The position numbers were made by a program, and so were the translations under genes. A stretch of 25,306 nt of DNA, taken from a virus. This document shows, in pieces, positions 2 to 6,212 of the stretch. Each line of letters begins with the position of its first letter. Positions within the stretch are counted from its first letter, which is position 1. The stretch lies in IMG/VR virus record IMGVR_UViG_3300041407_000139, positions 1 through 25,306 of that record. One strand, given 5' to 3'. The notes under the pieces are model-generated. The model did not search any database. It had not been told where the DNA came from and saw nothing but the letters and a program-made list of their open reading frames with translations.

Positions 2-1543
2 CGGCGGCCTGATTTCAGCGATGCCCGCTTTCTGGGGATCGTGATCTGGCAGGATGAGGATGAGGCGATAGAGGCGTGGCCGGAAGCCGCCGGCATCATT
101 TCCGGCATGATTGACAATAGTTCCAGCATCTCCGACACCTACGATGATCGGCCGCGTGACGGCTTGTGGTGCGACAAGCGCCGGCGCCGCATCCGGGTGG
201 TGCAGATGTATTACTTGTCGCGCGGCACCTGGCATTTGTGTTTTTTCACCAAGGGCGGCTTGCTCCGGCCATCGGAGCCGGTGCCTTTTCTGGATGATGA
301 GGGGCGCAGCGAATGCCCGCTGATTCTCCAATCGGCGTACATCGACAGGGATAATGACCGCTATGGCGTGGTCCGGGAGATGATCGGGCCACAGGACGAA
401 ATTAATAAGCGTAGGAGCAAAGCCCTACATCTGATCTCCGTTAGGCAAACACTTGGGGAGCAGGGCGCCGTGAGCGACGTGGCGGCCATGAAGCGCGAGA
501 TGGCCAAGCCGGACGGACACGTGGAAGTTGCGCCGGGAATGCGCTTCGAGAAGCTGGACACCAGTGATATGGCGCTGGCGCAGTTCAATTTGCTGCAAGA
601 AAGCAAGCAGGAAATTGATCTGATCGGTCCAAATGCCGCCATGACGGGAAAGGACGATAAAGCACCCTCCGGCCGCGCCATCCTGGCCAGCCAGCAGGGT
701 GGCACGATCGAATTAGGACCCCTGTCCGATAATCTCCGCCAGTGGCAGATGCGCGTGTTCCGCCAGCTTTGGAACCGTATCCGCCAGTTCTGGGATAAGG
801 AAAAATGGATCAGGGTTACCGATGACGAGGAAAAACTGAAATGGGTGGGGCTTAATGAGCCGATCACCCTGAGAAAACAGCTAGAAACCGATCCGGCCAA
901 ACAGCAGGAAATACAGCAGCTCCGCCAGAACGTGGAGCAGACACAGCCTCATATGCTCCAGCAGTTCGATATGGAGCTGAACGCGGCGCTGGATCAGGTG
1001 ATTGAGATCCGCAATCAGGTGGCTGAGATGGATGTGGATATCAGCCTTCTGGATGCGCCTGACACGGTGACGCTGATGGCCGAGCAGTTCGAGCAACTGG
1101 CCAACATGGCAAGCCATGGCGTCCCGATTCCGCCAGATGTCTTGATTGAAGCGTCCAGCCTTCGCAACAAAAAGCAGCTTCTGGAGCGCATGAAGGGCGG
1201 CGGCGACGATCCCGCGGCACAGGCGCAGCAACAGCAGGCGGCACAGGCGGCGCAGCTCCAGCAGGCGGAGCTTGAGGCCAAGATCCAGCTTCTCCAGGCA
1301 CAGGCACAGAAGGCGCAAGCCGATGCACAGGCCGCCATGCTCAAAGCACAGACACCGGAGCCGGCGCCGGCGCCGGTGGGTGACCCGCCTCCCTCTCCCC
1401 TGGATGAACAGGAGCAGATGGCCGGCATCGAAGCCGAGCGTGCCAAGGCGGATCTGATCCGCGCGCAAACCCGCAAGACGCTGGTGGAGGCGCACATGGC
1501 CGCCAATCCGCCACCGCCACAGCCAGCAGAGGCCAGGGCATGA
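2..1543 (+). CDS. P22-type portal protein, C-terminal part (5' end outside window)
   Basis: The portal forms the dodecameric ring at the head vertex through which DNA is packaged and ejected. The reading frame is open to the left edge (it begins with RRPDFSDARFLG...), so a GTG at 41 is only an internal codon and the gene starts upstream. Portal-family features visible are the stretch GVVREMIGPQDEINKRRSKAL, a run typical of P22-like portals, and IGPNAAMTG...APSGRAILASQQ. The last third (about residues 300-500 of the visible part) is Gln/Ala-rich and helical, resembling the long coiled-coil barrel at the portal C-terminus in P22. It ends in a Pro-rich tail. The stop overlaps the next start (ATGA at 1540). 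The family assignment is confident; the barrel role is inferred from composition. Confidence 0.93.
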   Translation, partial: RRPDFSDARFLGIVIWQDEDEAIEAWPEAAGIISGMIDNSSSISDTYDDRPRDGLWCDKRRRRIRVVQMYYLSRGTWHLCFFTKGGLLRPSEPVPFLDDEGRSECPLILQSAYIDRDNDRYGVVREMIGPQDEINKRRSKALHLISVRQTLGEQGAVSDVAAMKREMAKPDGHVEVAPGMRFEKLDTSDMALAQFNLLQESKQEIDLIGPNAAMTGKDDKAPSGRAILASQQGGTIELGPLSDNLRQWQMRVFRQLWNRIRQFWDKEKWIRVTDDEEKLKWVGLNEPITLRKQLETDPAKQQEIQQLRQNVEQTQPHMLQQFDMELNAALDQVIEIRNQVAEMDVDISLLDAPDTVTLMAEQFEQLANMASHGVPIPPDVLIEASSLRNKKQLLERMKGGGDDPAAQAQQQQAAQAAQLQQAELEAKIQLLQAQAQKAQADAQAAMLKAQTPEPAPAPVGDPPPSPLDEQEQMAGIEAERAKADLIRAQTRKTLVEAHMAANPPPPQPAEARA

Positions 1544-1977
1544 CGATGGATAGCGCGCTGTTTGAGCGGCTGGTGGCCGCCATGGTGGCCAAGGGCGGAA
1601 TGAGCGGCCTGACCGTGAACGAACCGCCGCCCGGCACCGATCCGGAACAGCGCGGCAACTGGCAGAGCCAGCCGGCGCCGGATGGCCGGTTCGTGGGCAT
1701 CCGGCCAACCCTGCCGAAAGGGACCACGCCCTACTATCCCCTGCCGGAAGGCGAGAACCCGGATAGCTTCCCCTTCTTCCAGGCCACGCCGATGCCACAG
1801 GAAGCGGAGCGCGCTTACCACCCCACGCTCCAGTATGAAAACTCAATGCCCTATGTCGCGGAGCTGGAGCGCGCCTATCAGGCCAACCAGCGCGCCGGGC
1901 GGAATCCGGGGCAGTACACCGAAGCACAAGAATTTCAGCGTCCCAAGACGCTGGCGGAAATCTTCGGGCGCCGCTGA
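1540..1977 (+). CDS. Conserved-looking phage protein of unknown function, 145 aa
   Basis: I do not recognise a family. The 145-residue product is soluble-looking, with an N-terminal amphipathic segment (MTMDSALFERLVAAMVAKGG), a Pro-rich middle (residues about 25-75) and a polar, helical C-terminus that ends KTLAEIFGRR. No membrane segment or signal peptide is seen. The ATG overlaps the portal stop codon by 4 bases (ATGA), and the stop at 1975-1977 is followed within 2 bases by the GTG of the next gene, so translation of the three is probably coupled. Its position directly after the portal suggests a head or portal-associated role, but this is inference from location only. Confidence 0.75.
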   Translation: MTMDSALFERLVAAMVAKGGMSGLTVNEPPPGTDPEQRGNWQSQPAPDGRFVGIRPTLPKGTTPYYPLPEGENPDSFPFFQATPMPQEAERAYHPTLQYENSMPYVAELERAYQANQRAGRNPGQYTEAQEFQRPKTLAEIFGRR

Positions 1978-1978
1978 C

Positions 1979-4123
1979 GTGACCGGACCCCTGCCGATCA
2001 CCGTCCAGCCGCAAGGAAACCGGCTCTGGGACTTCCTCCAGACCGCCGGCCAGCAGTTCGCCAGGGTGGCGGACGCGCGCTTTCCGGTGGGTGATATCCC
2101 TTTGCCGGGCGGCTTCAAGCTGAACGATGCGCTGGTGCCGTTCACCAACAGCCGGAGCGATGACACCACGCTGTTACCTGATAGCCTGACCCTCAACGAA
2201 CTTGGCAAGAGCCTGGAAGCGCTCTCCCCCGCCAATGTGGTCCGCCAGCACCGGGACGCCATCAGCGGCGTGGACAGTCAGACCGGAGAGCCGGTGGAGG
2301 GGTTCGCGCGCCTGATGGGGCTGTTCCCGGCGGCGGGCGCCGAAGGTGGCGGCCTGATGGCGCCGGCGGTGTCCAGAGGCTCCACCACCGTGGGCACCTA
2401 CGCCGGCGTGAAGTCCGCCACCGCGGATATCAAGGCGCTCACCAGGGCCAAGGAGCTGGAGCTGGGCGGCGGCAACGCCGGGCCGGCTGGCGAGATCCGC
2501 AAACAGACCGGATGGTTCAAGGATGCGGCGGGAGACTGGAAATATGAGATCTCCGACCATGACAGCGCCATAAAGCTGGCGGAGCCGAACGCCAAACAGG
2601 TCTACACCGGGCCTTATGATCCGGATGAGCCGCCGCGCTGGCTTTCGGAGACGAAGGTGGCCGATGCGCTGGAGCATCCGGATCTGCTGGCGGCATATCC
2701 CTGGCTGGGTGACGTGCAGTTGTTCAAGGATAGCCGGATGGGCCACGCCGATTCCGCGCAATTCGAGGGCGGCTATGGCAACCCGCCATCGGAATGGGGG
2801 ATCAGGACCGGCGGCGATCCGCAGAAGCGCGGTTTTCACCACGGCACCTTGCTGCATGAGATCCAGCACGCGGTTCAGGAATTTGAGAACCACGCGCGGG
2901 GCGCCAATCCGCGCCAGTTCACCAGCCAGGTGGATAATGATCTGGTGCAGCGCCTACTGAACGAAGCGAACGACTACAGCGGCGCCGAATTTCTCCGCCG
3001 CTATCAGGGCGATGCGCAGCTTTATGAGCAGATCCACGGATGGCCGCCATCCCCGGAAGCGGTGCGCCTGTCCAAACTGCCACGGGAAGAGACGGAAGGC
3101 ATGTCCGCTCACCTTCTCCGCCAGGTGGAGAAGCACAAGCGGGAGAATGACCCCTATGGCCAGTATATGAGGACGCTGGGGGAGGTTGAGGCGCGCGACA
3201 CAGAGGCGCGCATGAACCTTGACCCGCAAGAGCGCCGGCTATCGACACCCTACGCCAGCCAGGGTATCCCCTCCAGCCAGTACATCATTGCCAAGGCTCA
3301 AGATGACTTGCCGCCGCAGAGCGCCGGGCTGGACATGTCACCGGAAGCCAGAGCGGCACGCGCCGCGCTCCAAGGGTATTCGCTGGACGCCTATCACGGC
3401 ACCAAGGCGGATTTCACCGAATTTCAGCACGGTGGGCCGGGCAAGCCGAATCCGGACGGCTTCGTTCATGTGGGTGATCAGGACGCGGCCAACGGCATCA
3501 TCATGCGGGATTGGAACCGCCAGTATTGGGAGCGGGAGGCGCGCGAAAGCCCGCACGAATGGCGCCGCGCCGAAGCCCAAAGGGAGCTGGAGAGCACCTA
3601 CAACGGCGCTCACATCATGCCGCTGAAGGTGAAGGCGAACAACCCGCTGGATATGCCGGATCTGGGCCGCTGGGACAGCTACAGCAACTTCATGAGCAAT
3701 GCCGCCAAGGAAAAGGGTTGGGGGCAGGATTATGAACCGAAGGGGTGGACCCCGACGCCAGAGGTTTGGGCCGATTTCCGCGCGCTGGTGGATCGGGTGC
3801 GCAAGCTGGATTGGCAGGAACAGAAGACGGCATGGGCGGAAGGCTTCACCGAGATCCTGACCCGCCACGGCTATGACAGCGTGCGCTACCCGAACGAGAT
3901 CGAAGGCGCCGGCGGCTTCAGCTACATGCTGCTTGACCCCAGCCAGGCGCGCTCCCGCTTCGCGGAGTTTCATCCAGACAAGGTGAACGACGCCAACATT
4001 CTCTCCGGCCGCCACGGCATTCCGGTGCCGCGCGCCAACGAACCACCACCCGATGCCGATCCGGAGCGCCGCGTTCCAATGACGCCGGCGCTCGCCAGCT
4101 TCCTGGCGATGGGCGGCACGTGA
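1979..4123 (+). CDS. Polyvalent protein: LPD zincin-like (HEXXH) region plus ADP-ribosyltransferase-like domain, 714 aa
   Basis: Start chosen at GTG 1979, which follows the previous stop with 1 base between. An in-frame start at 1682 would overlap that gene entirely. Residues about 150-340 resemble the large polyvalent protein-associated (LPD) domains of phage and conjugative-element proteins: a segment like QTGWFKDAAGDWKYEISD leads to LLHEIQHAVQ, where H293-E294-x-x-H297 is a zincin-type metal site. Residues about 465-680 resemble ADP-ribosyltransferases: it opens with Y472-H473-G-T (NAD-binding strand), contains IMPLKVKANNPLDM, and ends with GYDSVRYPNE and LLDPSQARSRFAEF (D653-P-S-Q656). 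Such proteins are proposed to enter the host with the DNA and act on host targets. It lies between portal and scaffold, a head-gene position. The domain families are inferred from motifs; activity and target are unknown. Confidence 0.82.
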   Translation: MTGPLPITVQPQGNRLWDFLQTAGQQFARVADARFPVGDIPLPGGFKLNDALVPFTNSRSDDTTLLPDSLTLNELGKSLEALSPANVVRQHRDAISGVDSQTGEPVEGFARLMGLFPAAGAEGGGLMAPAVSRGSTTVGTYAGVKSATADIKALTRAKELELGGGNAGPAGEIRKQTGWFKDAAGDWKYEISDHDSAIKLAEPNAKQVYTGPYDPDEPPRWLSETKVADALEHPDLLAAYPWLGDVQLFKDSRMGHADSAQFEGGYGNPPSEWGIRTGGDPQKRGFHHGTLLHEIQHAVQEFENHARGANPRQFTSQVDNDLVQRLLNEANDYSGAEFLRRYQGDAQLYEQIHGWPPSPEAVRLSKLPREETEGMSAHLLRQVEKHKRENDPYGQYMRTLGEVEARDTEARMNLDPQERRLSTPYASQGIPSSQYIIAKAQDDLPPQSAGLDMSPEARAARAALQGYSLDAYHGTKADFTEFQHGGPGKPNPDGFVHVGDQDAANGIIMRDWNRQYWEREARESPHEWRRAEAQRELESTYNGAHIMPLKVKANNPLDMPDLGRWDSYSNFMSNAAKEKGWGQDYEPKGWTPTPEVWADFRALVDRVRKLDWQEQKTAWAEGFTEILTRHGYDSVRYPNEIEGAGGFSYMLLDPSQARSRFAEFHPDKVNDANILSGRHGIPVPRANEPPPDADPERRVPMTPALASFLAMGGT

Positions 4124-4285: not shown

Positions 4286-5098
4286 ATGACTGGCCTTGAC
4301 GAGATCCTGACCGGGAGCACCCCGGCGCGGGACGCGCCACCCCCTGCCCAAGCGCCGGCTGAGCCGGCACCGCAGAGGGAGGCGCCACCGCCGCCGGCTC
4401 CCACACCGGGCGATGACAGACAGGTGGATTTCGGGCGGCGTTCCGCCGATCCCGCACCCCCACCGGAACCCGCGGCGCCGCCGGCCGCGGAAACACAGGA
4501 ACCCGATCAAGTCCCGATTAGCGCGCTTCGGGATGAGCGCAAAAAGCGTCAGGCCGCTGAGGCTGAGCTGCAGAGGCGCATGGCCGCCTATGAGGCTCAA
4601 GTACAGCAGCCGGCGCCGCAAGTGAACCGGCCTGATCTGTTTGAAGACCCTGATGGAGCGTTAAACTACGTCCAACACCAGTTTCAGCAGCAATTGACGC
4701 GGACACGTCTGGATATGTCCGTGGCAATGGCCAAGACGCAGTTTCAAGATTACGAGCAGGCAGAGGCGGCATTTGTCGATGCCGTCAAAGCAAACCCCAC
4801 GCTCTACGATCAGATGCTGAATGATCCGCACCCGGCGGGCTTTGCCTACCGGGTAGGAAAACAAGTCGAAGCGCTGCGCGAAATTGGGAGCGATCCCAAC
4901 GCTTATAAGACGAAAATCCGCCAGGAGCTGGAAGCCGAGCTGCGCAAGCAGATCGAAAGCGAACAGAGATCAGGCCAGGCCGCCGTGCGCTCATCCATCC
5001 CGCCGAGCTTGGCAGCCGCGAGGGACACCAATGGCCGGTTTGCGCCAGGGTGGTCCGGAGCGCCGCCGCTCAAGGATATTCTTGCGCCGCGTAAGTAA
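4286..5098 (+). CDS. Head scaffolding protein, 270 aa
   Basis: Scaffolding proteins guide coat assembly and leave the head before or during packaging. The product has the usual make-up: a disordered Pro/Ala-rich N-terminus (residues about 12-80), then a charged coiled coil beginning ISALRDERKKRQAAEAELQRR (about 74-100), a helical middle, and a C-terminal helix (EAELRKQIESEQRSGQAAV) with a short basic tail that ends APRK. In P22-like scaffolds the C-terminus binds coat protein. GGAGA at 4271-4275 is a fitting ribosome site 10 bases before the ATG. It lies just upstream of the coat gene, the standard order. Family assignment is from composition and synteny, as these proteins diverge quickly. 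Confidence 0.85.
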   Translation: MTGLDEILTGSTPARDAPPPAQAPAEPAPQREAPPPPAPTPGDDRQVDFGRRSADPAPPPEPAAPPAAETQEPDQVPISALRDERKKRQAAEAELQRRMAAYEAQVQQPAPQVNRPDLFEDPDGALNYVQHQFQQQLTRTRLDMSVAMAKTQFQDYEQAEAAFVDAVKANPTLYDQMLNDPHPAGFAYRVGKQVEALREIGSDPNAYKTKIRQELEAELRKQIESEQRSGQAAVRSSIPPSLAAARDTNGRFAPGWSGAPPLKDILAPRK

Positions 5099-5129: not shown

Positions 5130-6212
5130 ATGGCAAATACCGTAGCCGCAACCGGCTTAACCCCTCAACAATGGGACAGTGACTTCTTCGTTGAATACTT
5201 GCGGGAATCCCGGTTCAAGCCTTACATGGGCACCGGCGAAACCAACATGATTCAGGTGAAGGAGGATCTGACCAAGAAGCGCGGTGACAGCATCACCTTC
5301 GCGCTGGTCAACAAGCTGGACGGCGCCGGCGTGACCGGCACCGGAACGCTTGAGGGGAACGAGGAAGCGATGGATAGCCGGAGCTTCCGGCTGTTTGTCG
5401 ATAAGATTAGGAACGGTGTCCGCATTCCAGAAATGGAAGAGCAGAGAAGCGCGATCGATCTGCGCGAAGCGGCGCGCGCCGTGCTGAAAACGTGGATCTC
5501 CGAGCTGACCAAGAGCGCGATCGTGAACGCCATGGGCAGTATTAACGGCGTGTCCTACGGTACAGCATCGGAAGGGCAAAAAGACGCCTGGCTGACTGAC
5601 AATGCCGACCGTGTATTGTTCGGCGCCGCCAGGGGGAACATGGTGGCCGGCGACCATTCGGCCAGTCTTCTGAATGTTGACGGCACCAATGACCGGCTGA
5701 CCCCCGCGGCGATTTCTCTGATGAAGAGAATTGCCAAGACGGCAACCCCGCGTATCCGCCCGATCACCGTAAAAGGTGATGAGGAATGGTACGTACTATT
5801 CGCCAACTCGCTGGTGTTCCGCGATCTGGCGAATAACACCACAATGATGCAGGCCAACCGGGACGCGCTCGCCAGGGGGATGGACAATCCTCTGTTTACC
5901 GGCGGCGATCTTGTCTGGGATGGCGTCATTATCAAGGAGCTGGAAGACATTGCTAATGTTGCTGGTGTGGGGGCTGGCGCAATCGATGTGGCGCCAGCTT
6001 ATCTCTGCGGTGCGCAAAATCTGGGGATTGGCTGGGCCAAGCGCACCAAGTCTGTGACTGAAGTCTTCGACTATGGGGATAAATTCGGCGTGGCCATTGA
6101 GGAAATCCGTGGCTTCGCTAAACTTACCTTCGGGAGCGGAGCTTCGGACACCGCCGATCTTAAGGACCATGGCCAGGTAACGGGCTGGTTTGCCGCAGTG
6201 GCGGACGCCTGA
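5130..6212 (+). CDS. Major capsid protein, N4-gp56-like (DUF4043) family, 360 aa
   Basis: This is the main shell subunit, an HK97-fold protein by family. The N-terminal region (FKPYMGTGETNMIQVKEDL), the following KKRGDSITFALVNKLDGAGV, then GTGTLEGNEEAMD, match the N4-gp56 family of coat proteins, which differs from classical P22 gp5. Length (360 aa) is in the usual range. The ATG lies 31 bases after the scaffold stop with only a weak purine-rich ribosome site (GGAATAGAGCGAG), which is odd for what should be the most abundant virion protein. No truncation or frameshift is seen. Alternatives within the HK97-fold superfamily are possible, but a coat function is very likely given the scaffold gene in front. 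Confidence 0.92.
   Translation: MANTVAATGLTPQQWDSDFFVEYLRESRFKPYMGTGETNMIQVKEDLTKKRGDSITFALVNKLDGAGVTGTGTLEGNEEAMDSRSFRLFVDKIRNGVRIPEMEEQRSAIDLREAARAVLKTWISELTKSAIVNAMGSINGVSYGTASEGQKDAWLTDNADRVLFGAARGNMVAGDHSASLLNVDGTNDRLTPAAISLMKRIAKTATPRIRPITVKGDEEWYVLFANSLVFRDLANNTTMMQANRDALARGMDNPLFTGGDLVWDGVIIKELEDIANVAGVGAGAIDVAPAYLCGAQNLGIGWAKRTKSVTEVFDYGDKFGVAIEEIRGFAKLTFGSGASDTADLKDHGQVTGWFAAVADA

What the first reader, a model, noticed from the sequence alone, without database searches (positions are those of the whole stretch)
1979..4123. Enzyme-bearing polyvalent protein (HEXXH region plus ADP-ribosyltransferase-like domain) placed between portal and scaffold
Seen: HEIQH at residues 293-297 and an ART-like domain from YHGT (472-475) to DPSQ (653-656). 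Known: polyvalent proteins of phages and conjugative elements combine such domains and are thought to be delivered to the host. Inference: in a head-gene position, this protein could be packaged and injected to modify host targets (for example transcription or defence proteins), or act on virion proteins.
Basis: partly seen in the sequence, partly recalled or inferred. Interest (0 to 1): 0.7.

Follow-up and report, generated by a model that had tools for sequence, protein, structure and literature searches.

The report
Phage-head protease carrying an ADP-ribosyltransferase
A phage gene sitting among the genes for its head encodes a probable zinc protease fused to a variant ADP-ribosyltransferase, and its relatives suggest a conserved protease 'carrier' in phage heads whose enzymatic tail is swapped between phages, probably to be delivered into the bacterium with the DNA.

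Summary
Conservation and confident AlphaFold models support both; the ART model's best PDB match is an ejection protein of the cyanophage A4 pre-ejectosome. One correction: the strand-2 catalytic Tyr is missing (Val496-His497; the position is aromatic in 66 of 70 relatives, His in 3), so ART activity is not assured. The interpretation (packaged, injected, host-modifying) matches published proposals for polyvalent proteins and head-linked phage ARTs. Context supports it, but nothing here tests delivery or activity. Added here: compact LPD23-zincin proteins (339-882 aa) recur beside terL, portal, scaffold or head-closure genes in several head lineages (17 of 33 non-redundant cases detected). Their N-terminal half is constant; the C-terminal part is absent, ART, methyltransferase, DUF7178 or unknown. 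The closest relative (71%) lies between terL and an unrelated portal, on a contig sharing only this gene with the window. I read it as a new variant of the polyvalent kind: a head-module protease carrier with interchangeable payload. Interest moderate.

The parts
1979..4123 (+). Compact polyvalent protein gene, 714 aa, GTG start one base after the stop of the preceding ORF
1979..2395 (+). N-terminal leader (residues 1-139), less conserved (61% to L002 over residues 1-135, dN/dS about 0.31), no family match
2396..2563 (+). LPD23 (PF18838), residues 140-195
   Evidence: E 8.3e-15, above Pfam cut-off
2717..3298 (+). Zincin-like metallopeptidase domain, about residues 247-440
   Evidence: AlphaFold model pLDDT 87, pTM 0.83 for residues 126-445; conservation
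2855..2869 (+). HEIQH, residues 293-297, in the predicted active-site helix 288-303
3179..3196 (+). GEVEAR, residues 401-406; E402 or E404 is the predicted third zinc ligand, on helix 400-410
3371..3997 (+). ART-PolyVal-type domain, residues 465-673
   Evidence: profile made without it: E 9e-23; Pfam PF18760 E 0.0015, below cut-off; AlphaFold model pLDDT 78, ART-fold matches
3392..3403 (+). YHGT 472-475, strand-1 motif with the catalytic-type H473
3464..3478 (+). V496-H497-V-G-D, strand-2 position where relatives carry Tyr/Phe/Trp (66 of 70) or His (3 of 70)
3935..3946 (+). DPSQ 653-656, strand-5 motif matching FDPEQIKS of relatives; Q kept in 44 of 64, D in 17 of 67
4007..4120 (+). C-terminal tail 677-714, hardly conserved with L002, apparently lineage specific
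2..1543 (+). P22-like portal protein (5' end cut by the contig)
   Evidence: PF16510 E 1e-74, phrog_156
1540..1977 (+). 145-aa ORF of unknown family overlapping the portal stop
4286..5098 (+). Probable scaffold protein
   Evidence: position before MCP; homologue before MCP in L037 (1.6e-22)
5130..6212 (+). Major capsid protein
   Evidence: PF13252, phrog_334

Best explanation
It is a compact polyvalent head-cargo protein. The N-terminal leader plus LPD23 and the zinc-protease domain form a constant carrier and processing module that is made together with portal, scaffold and capsid and, I infer, is built into the procapsid and leaves with the DNA. The C-terminal ART-type domain is an exchangeable payload. 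After ejection (or during head maturation) the protease would cut the protein itself and/or a virion or host protein, and the payload would bind NAD and modify a host molecule. Shown here: domain identities, conservation of the protease residues, purifying selection on both domains, head-gene location in several lineages, exchange of payloads on a constant carrier, and presence of the same gene in unrelated head modules. Inferred: packaging, ejection, proteolysis, ADP-ribosylation and any host target.
For: Domains: LPD23 E 8e-15; HExxH/GExE conservation; model with strands, an HExxH helix and a Glu helix in the zincin order; the only PDB sequence matches of the protease profile are two IrrE zincins, aligned up to the HEXXH motif (E 0.02 and 0.13); ART profile E 9e-23; the better PDB matches of the ART model are mostly ART-fold proteins, the top one being cyanophage A4 pre-ejectosome residues 1418-1600 (Z 6.7, rmsd 4.3 over 122 residues; Foldseek E 0.011), and phage A-4L ORF27 has YHGT...GTYF at 1424, the same place. 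Context: of 33 non-redundant compact relatives 17 have terL, portal, scaffold, MCP or head-closure homologues within 1 kb on the same strand, against 1 of 50 large relatives (the query set favours compact loci); two more have a portal upstream and two a virion structural protein. Payload exchange: the L137 and L162 carriers are 58% identical over 187 aa with unrelated C-termini; C-termini include ART (L015, L137, L203/L205, L164, L154), Methyltransf_23 (L145) and DUF7178 (L173), or nothing. Gene movement: window and L002 share 77% nt identity over 1.7 kb of this gene and nothing else detectable, though L002 carries terL, another portal family (phrog_1216), scaffold and the start of an MCP. Selection: dN/dS about 0.12 for the protease, 0.31 for the ART.
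Against: No virion proteomics, no activity data. The strand-2 Tyr is absent, so the ART may be inactive. Foldseek finds no significant PDB match for the protease model. Carriers without any payload occupy comparable head slots (L037, L169, L182, L185), so the protease must have a role of its own and payload release cannot be its only job. The context statistic uses head-gene queries taken mostly from compact loci.
Confidence: 0.55

Rival explanations
1. The protein is mainly a head-assembly or maturation protease that acts on scaffold, portal-associated or ejection proteins; the C-terminal ART-like domain is a degenerate add-on that only helps binding or packing.
For: Carriers without payload sit in head slots too; protease more constrained than the ART (dN/dS 0.12 versus 0.31); catalytic Tyr of the ART missing.
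Against: The ART is still under purifying selection, with H473 and the DPSQ-type motif kept; unrelated enzyme domains recur at the same C-terminal place, which fits payload better than packing; giant relatives lie beside lysozyme/internal-virion genes rather than head-maturation genes.
Confidence: 0.2
2. The strand-2 change is functional: His497 replaces Tyr, giving an H-H-D/Q ART, perhaps with a changed substrate (nucleic acid, phosphate or small molecule) as in the H-H-h clade.
For: Three other ARTs carry HFGT/HFGS at this place (L032 Tunturi_5, L059, L085), and L032, encoded next to its portal gene, also shares the P-[KR]-GW insert with the window ART; the published classification has an H-H-h clade acting on RNA ends and small molecules (PMC9503650).
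Against: In the profile alignment the Tyr column falls on V496, not H497, so the register is uncertain; no structure with NAD.
Confidence: 0.15
3. Ordinary intracellular late protein, for example an anti-defence or exclusion factor made with head genes but not packaged.
For: Head operons can carry accessory genes; no packaging signal was proven.
Against: Repeated location at several head slots, relation to giant polyvalent proteins annotated as structural proteins, ART-fold domain solved in a podophage pre-ejectosome.
Confidence: 0.1

Closest known systems
Polyvalent proteins of phages and conjugative elements (Iyer et al. 2017, PMC5512222)
   Same: LPD domain, zincin-like MPTase and ART in one polypeptide; encoded with virion genes
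   Different: Compact (714 aa, against about 1,000-4,000 for giant relatives), one constant carrier with one exchangeable C-terminal domain; the 2017 paper says its proteins did not follow the organisation of polymorphic toxins
Head-linked phage ARTs, N4-ART family and MuF-ART fusions (PMC9503650)
   Same: ART encoded next to terminase, portal and capsid genes, proposed to be packaged
   Different: Carrier is LPD23-zincin, not MuF; strand-2 Tyr missing
MuF polymorphic toxins of temperate phages (Jamet et al. 2017, PMC5576092)
   Same: DNA-packaging-module location, constant N-terminal domain, variable C-terminal enzyme
   Different: No MuF domain; other phage groups; no immunity gene was looked for
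L002, IMGVR_UViG_3300048913_000006
   Same: 71% identical over residues 16-677, same architecture and same V/I-H at strand 2
   Different: Lies between terL and a phrog_1216 portal; different C-terminal tail, shared with L130 of its own head lineage
Cyanophage A4 pre-ejectosome protein (PDB 9k3a chain B)
   Same: ART-fold domain in a podophage ejection protein inside the capsid
   Different: Large ejection protein, no LPD23-zincin found in phage A-4L's counterpart; sequence similarity very weak
Phage T4 Alt
   Same: Packaged, injected ART is the functional precedent (PMC5512222)
   Different: R-S-E clade, no protease domain

Membership tests
Polyvalent proteins (Iyer et al. 2017) | Two or more domains of unrelated biochemical type in one polypeptide | tested here: met
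   LPD23, zincin-like and ART-type domains
Polyvalent proteins (Iyer et al. 2017) | Encoded with virion components or conjugation genes | tested here: met
   portal, scaffold-like and MCP neighbours
Polyvalent proteins (Iyer et al. 2017) | Delivered into the host cell | not testable with these tools
   needs virion proteomics and ejection assays
Pfam LPD23 (PF18838) | Score over the curated cut-off | tested here: met
   54.8 bits against 27
Zincin-like MPTase of polyvalent proteins | HEXXH on a helix and a conserved Glu on a following helix | tested here: met
   model helices 288-303 and 400-410; conservation
Zincin-like MPTase of polyvalent proteins | Fold match to a solved zincin | tested here: inconclusive
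   Foldseek and VIA-align gave no significant match; weak IrrE sequence match E 0.02; relative L037 passes the cut-off of Pfam DUF6782, putative metallopeptidase
Zincin-like MPTase of polyvalent proteins | Zinc binding and proteolysis | not testable with these tools
   biochemistry needed
ART-PolyVal / H-Y-[EDQ] ART clade | ART fold and profile similarity | tested here: met
   profile E 9e-23; ART-fold PDB matches
ART-PolyVal / H-Y-[EDQ] ART clade | His in strand 1 | tested here: met
   H473, strand 469-475; kept in 66 of 74
ART-PolyVal / H-Y-[EDQ] ART clade | Tyr in strand 2 | tested here: not met
   V496-H497 in the window, I-H in L002; so not filed as a canonical H-Y-D ART
ART-PolyVal / H-Y-[EDQ] ART clade | Asp (or E/Q) in strand 5 | tested here: met
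   D653 and Q656 present
ART-PolyVal / H-Y-[EDQ] ART clade | Pfam PF18760 cut-off | tested here: not met
   19.8 bits against 31.2
MuF polymorphic toxins | MuF domain | tested here: not met
   no MuF match in Pfam or PHROGs
MuF polymorphic toxins | Constant N-terminus with variable C-terminal enzyme | tested here: met
   (works like, not a member)

The most novel reading that the evidence does not exclude
LPD23-zincin is a general head-delivery carrier of podovirus-like phages, a protease-based counterpart of MuF: a constant, capsid-loaded protease that releases whichever C-terminal enzyme is fused to it, with gene ends specific to each head lineage acting as docking signals, so that payloads and whole genes move between unrelated heads.
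Probability: 0.3. Interest if true: 0.65.

Novelty: new variant of a known kind. Interest (0 to 1): 0.42.

Why it matters
If true, a single conserved protease module would mark the head-delivered effectors of many uncultured phages, and reading what is fused to it would list their payloads. It would also make the open question of what the zincin of polyvalent proteins does testable in a small protein of 400-700 aa rather than in proteins of several thousand residues, including natural versions with and without payload in head-gene slots.

Tried and rejected
PDB fold search of the LPD23-protease model gave no significant match; VIA-align rows only covered the helical region 184-273 of the model and are uninformative, so no fold claim rests on them. 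The ART alignment profile found no PDB sequence. Rfam search of L009, L002, L015 and the window found nothing, so no known intron explains the split terminase of L009. NCBIfam gave no match. A scan with the His-variant ART alignment failed for lack of conserved stretches. Search of 385 genomes of the class of the Albimonas host found no further match besides that host itself. The invariance of HExxH in alignment A4 was discarded as evidence because I had chosen most of its rows by that motif; one search is used instead. The ParB-like look (DG-[HN]-HR) of the C-termini of L162, L143 and L196 was not confirmed by Pfam. T4 Alt-type (R-S-E) and MuF membership were considered and rejected. Papers with virion mass spectrometry of LPD23 proteins were sought and not found. 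The cyanophage A4 structure paper is not held.

Full report
The gene and its place. window:1979-4123 (+) reads as 714 aa from a GTG one base after the stop of a 145-aa ORF. That ORF overlaps the end of a P22-like portal gene (PF16510 E 1e-74, phrog_156). Downstream come an ORF homologous to the gene directly before the capsid gene in an Albimonas prophage (1.6e-22), taken as scaffold, and the major capsid protein (phrog_334). Further on lie a head-closure Hc3-type protein, a DNA-ejection family (phrog_598) and a transglycosylase-bearing protein. The window is a 25.3-kb IMG/VR record and nothing more of its genome is held.

The protease part. Pfam finds LPD23 at residues 140-195 (E 8e-15). Residues 126-445 were predicted by AlphaFold with 64 relatives (pLDDT 87, pTM 0.83): strands at 247-251, 264-266 and 274-277, then helix 288-303 with HEIQH, then, after further helices, helix 400-410 with GEVEAR. 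This is the order described for zincin MPTases of polyvalent proteins (PMC5512222). In relatives not selected for HExxH, His-Glu-His are kept in 110, 112 and 110 of 112 rows and E402/E404 in 106 and 105 of 108. The profile's only PDB sequence matches are two IrrE zincins, ending at the HEXXH motif (E 0.02 and 0.13), and one relative passes the cut-off of Pfam DUF6782, a putative metallopeptidase family. PDB fold search was not significant, so the zincin assignment rests on motif order, conservation and weak sequence similarity. Activity is inferred.

The ART part. Pfam ART-PolyVal is reached only at E 0.0015, below its cut-off. A profile built from relatives while leaving out the window and L002 scores residues 451-673 at E 9e-23 over its whole length. 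The AlphaFold model (pLDDT 78) finds mostly ART-fold proteins among its better PDB matches: RES toxins, diphtheria toxin, tankyrase, PARP1, NatT, and an anti-CRISPR entry. The top match, Z 6.7 with Foldseek E 0.011, is residues 1418-1600 of a protein in the cyanophage A4 pre-ejectosome (9k3a). In phage A-4L the 1,717-aa ORF27 carries YHGT...GTYF at 1424, which fits that numbering; that A-4L and the A4 of 9k3a are the same phage is my assumption. A Z under 8 alone proves little, but the list is consistently one fold.

Active-site residues. H473 sits in strand 1 and D653/Q656 just after strand 5, as in the family. The strand-2 Tyr is not there. In the profile alignment its column is Y, F or W in 66 of 70 rows, H in 3, and V in the window. 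The next residue is H497; by eye, FVHVGDQDAAN matches FTHFGTQQAAN of the jumbo phage Tunturi_5 ART, which is encoded directly before a portal gene and shares a P-[KR]-GW insert. So either His497 replaces Tyr by a one-residue shift, or the site is damaged. The domain is nevertheless under purifying selection between window and L002 (dN/dS about 0.31, against 0.12 for the protease).

Same gene, other heads. The closest relative, L002 (71% aa; 77% nt over 1.7 kb), starts within the stop codon of terL and is followed by a portal of another family (phrog_1216), a scaffold (phrog_3927) and the start of an MCP; none of these has a detectable counterpart in the window. The shared stretch stops at about residue 677: L002's last 20 or so residues (APGGGLL[TP]API...KRKR) are instead shared with L130, a protein of L002's own head lineage with a different middle. 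The gene has thus moved between unrelated head modules, apparently keeping local ends.

A recurring cassette. A scan of IMG/VR found 357 relatives of the LPD23-protease part, of which the best 80 were read. Together with earlier loci, the complete proteins fall into a compact class of 37 (339-882 aa) and a large class (1,053-3,943 aa). Of 33 non-redundant compact ones, 17 have terL, portal, scaffold, MCP or Hc3 homologues within 1 kb on the same strand, against 1 of 50 large ones (Fisher p 8e-8). The head queries came mostly from compact loci, so this contrast is biased upwards; PHROG scans of neighbours independently add two portals and two virion structural proteins for compact ones (two others lie beside lysis genes), and lysozyme/internal-virion type proteins for five of ten large ones. 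The slots differ: after portal (window, L162, L203, L205, L185, L164), between terL and portal (L002, L015, L202, L182 group), or beside Hc3 (L037/L127, L027, L156, L187).

Constant carrier, variable payload. In the compact class the LPD23-protease half is constant, while the part behind GExEAR is short or absent (under 40 aa) in 15 of 37 modules and longer in 22, without similarity between the ends of most related pairs. L137 and L162 have carriers 58% identical over 187 aa and unrelated ends, ART versus another domain. Identified payloads are ART (window, L002, L015, L137, L203/L205, L164, L154), methyltransferase (L145, at the Pfam cut-off) and DUF7178 (L173). Iyer et al. 2017 say their polyvalent proteins did not follow the organisation of polymorphic toxins; this compact subset does resemble it, as MuF toxins do (PMC5576092).

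Mechanism. I take the carrier to be incorporated in the procapsid with scaffold and portal, to be ejected with DNA, and to cut itself and/or another protein; the payload then acts in the host. Carriers without payload imply that the protease has a function of its own. Head packaging of such ARTs is an existing proposal (PMC9503650); for this gene it is not shown.

Verdict. The finding is real and the domain reading is right apart from the missing Tyr. The added value is the compact, head-slot, payload-swapping class and the presence of this gene in unrelated heads.

Noticed in passing
L009:241-3010 (IMGVR_UViG_3300004774_000097): A compact LPD23-zincin ORF (about 945-2228) lies between two ORFs that read as the ATPase half (241-957) and nuclease half (2177-3010) of one terminase large subunit; no Rfam intron found. 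Looks like cargo inserted into terL, or a split terminase.
   Followed up: partly
L002:2600-2693 and the 3' end of L130:103-2256: Proteins with different middles share the C-terminal tail APGGGLL[TP]API...KRKR and a start MGLLD; short G-L-L motifs recur near the ends of several compact carriers. Possible lineage-specific head-docking signal.
   Followed up: partly
L032:3374-8489 (Tunturiibacter phage Tunturi_5, jumbo phage): A protein with ART-PolyVal matches and a nucleoside deoxyribosyltransferase-like domain, annotated as MutT/NUDIX hydrolase, is encoded directly before the portal gene; its first ART has the same His-variant strand 2.
   Followed up: partly
L130:103-2256: First protease motif is HEIGGH (HEXXXH), the variant spacing described by Iyer et al. 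2017, and an HExxH motif lies in the C-terminal half.
   Followed up: no
window:1540-1977: 145-aa ORF between portal and the polyvalent gene, overlapping the portal stop; no match in Pfam or PHROGs.
   Followed up: no
window:19193-21349: 718-aa protein matching phrog_36512 (unknown function, E 3e-43) directly after the transglycosylase-bearing protein, in the position of an ejection protein.
   Followed up: no
L162:6946-7275, L143:3354-3929, L196:2426-3121: C-terminal payloads with a DG[HN]HR or EGRHR motif that looks ParB/sulfiredoxin-like; Pfam did not confirm it.
   Followed up: partly
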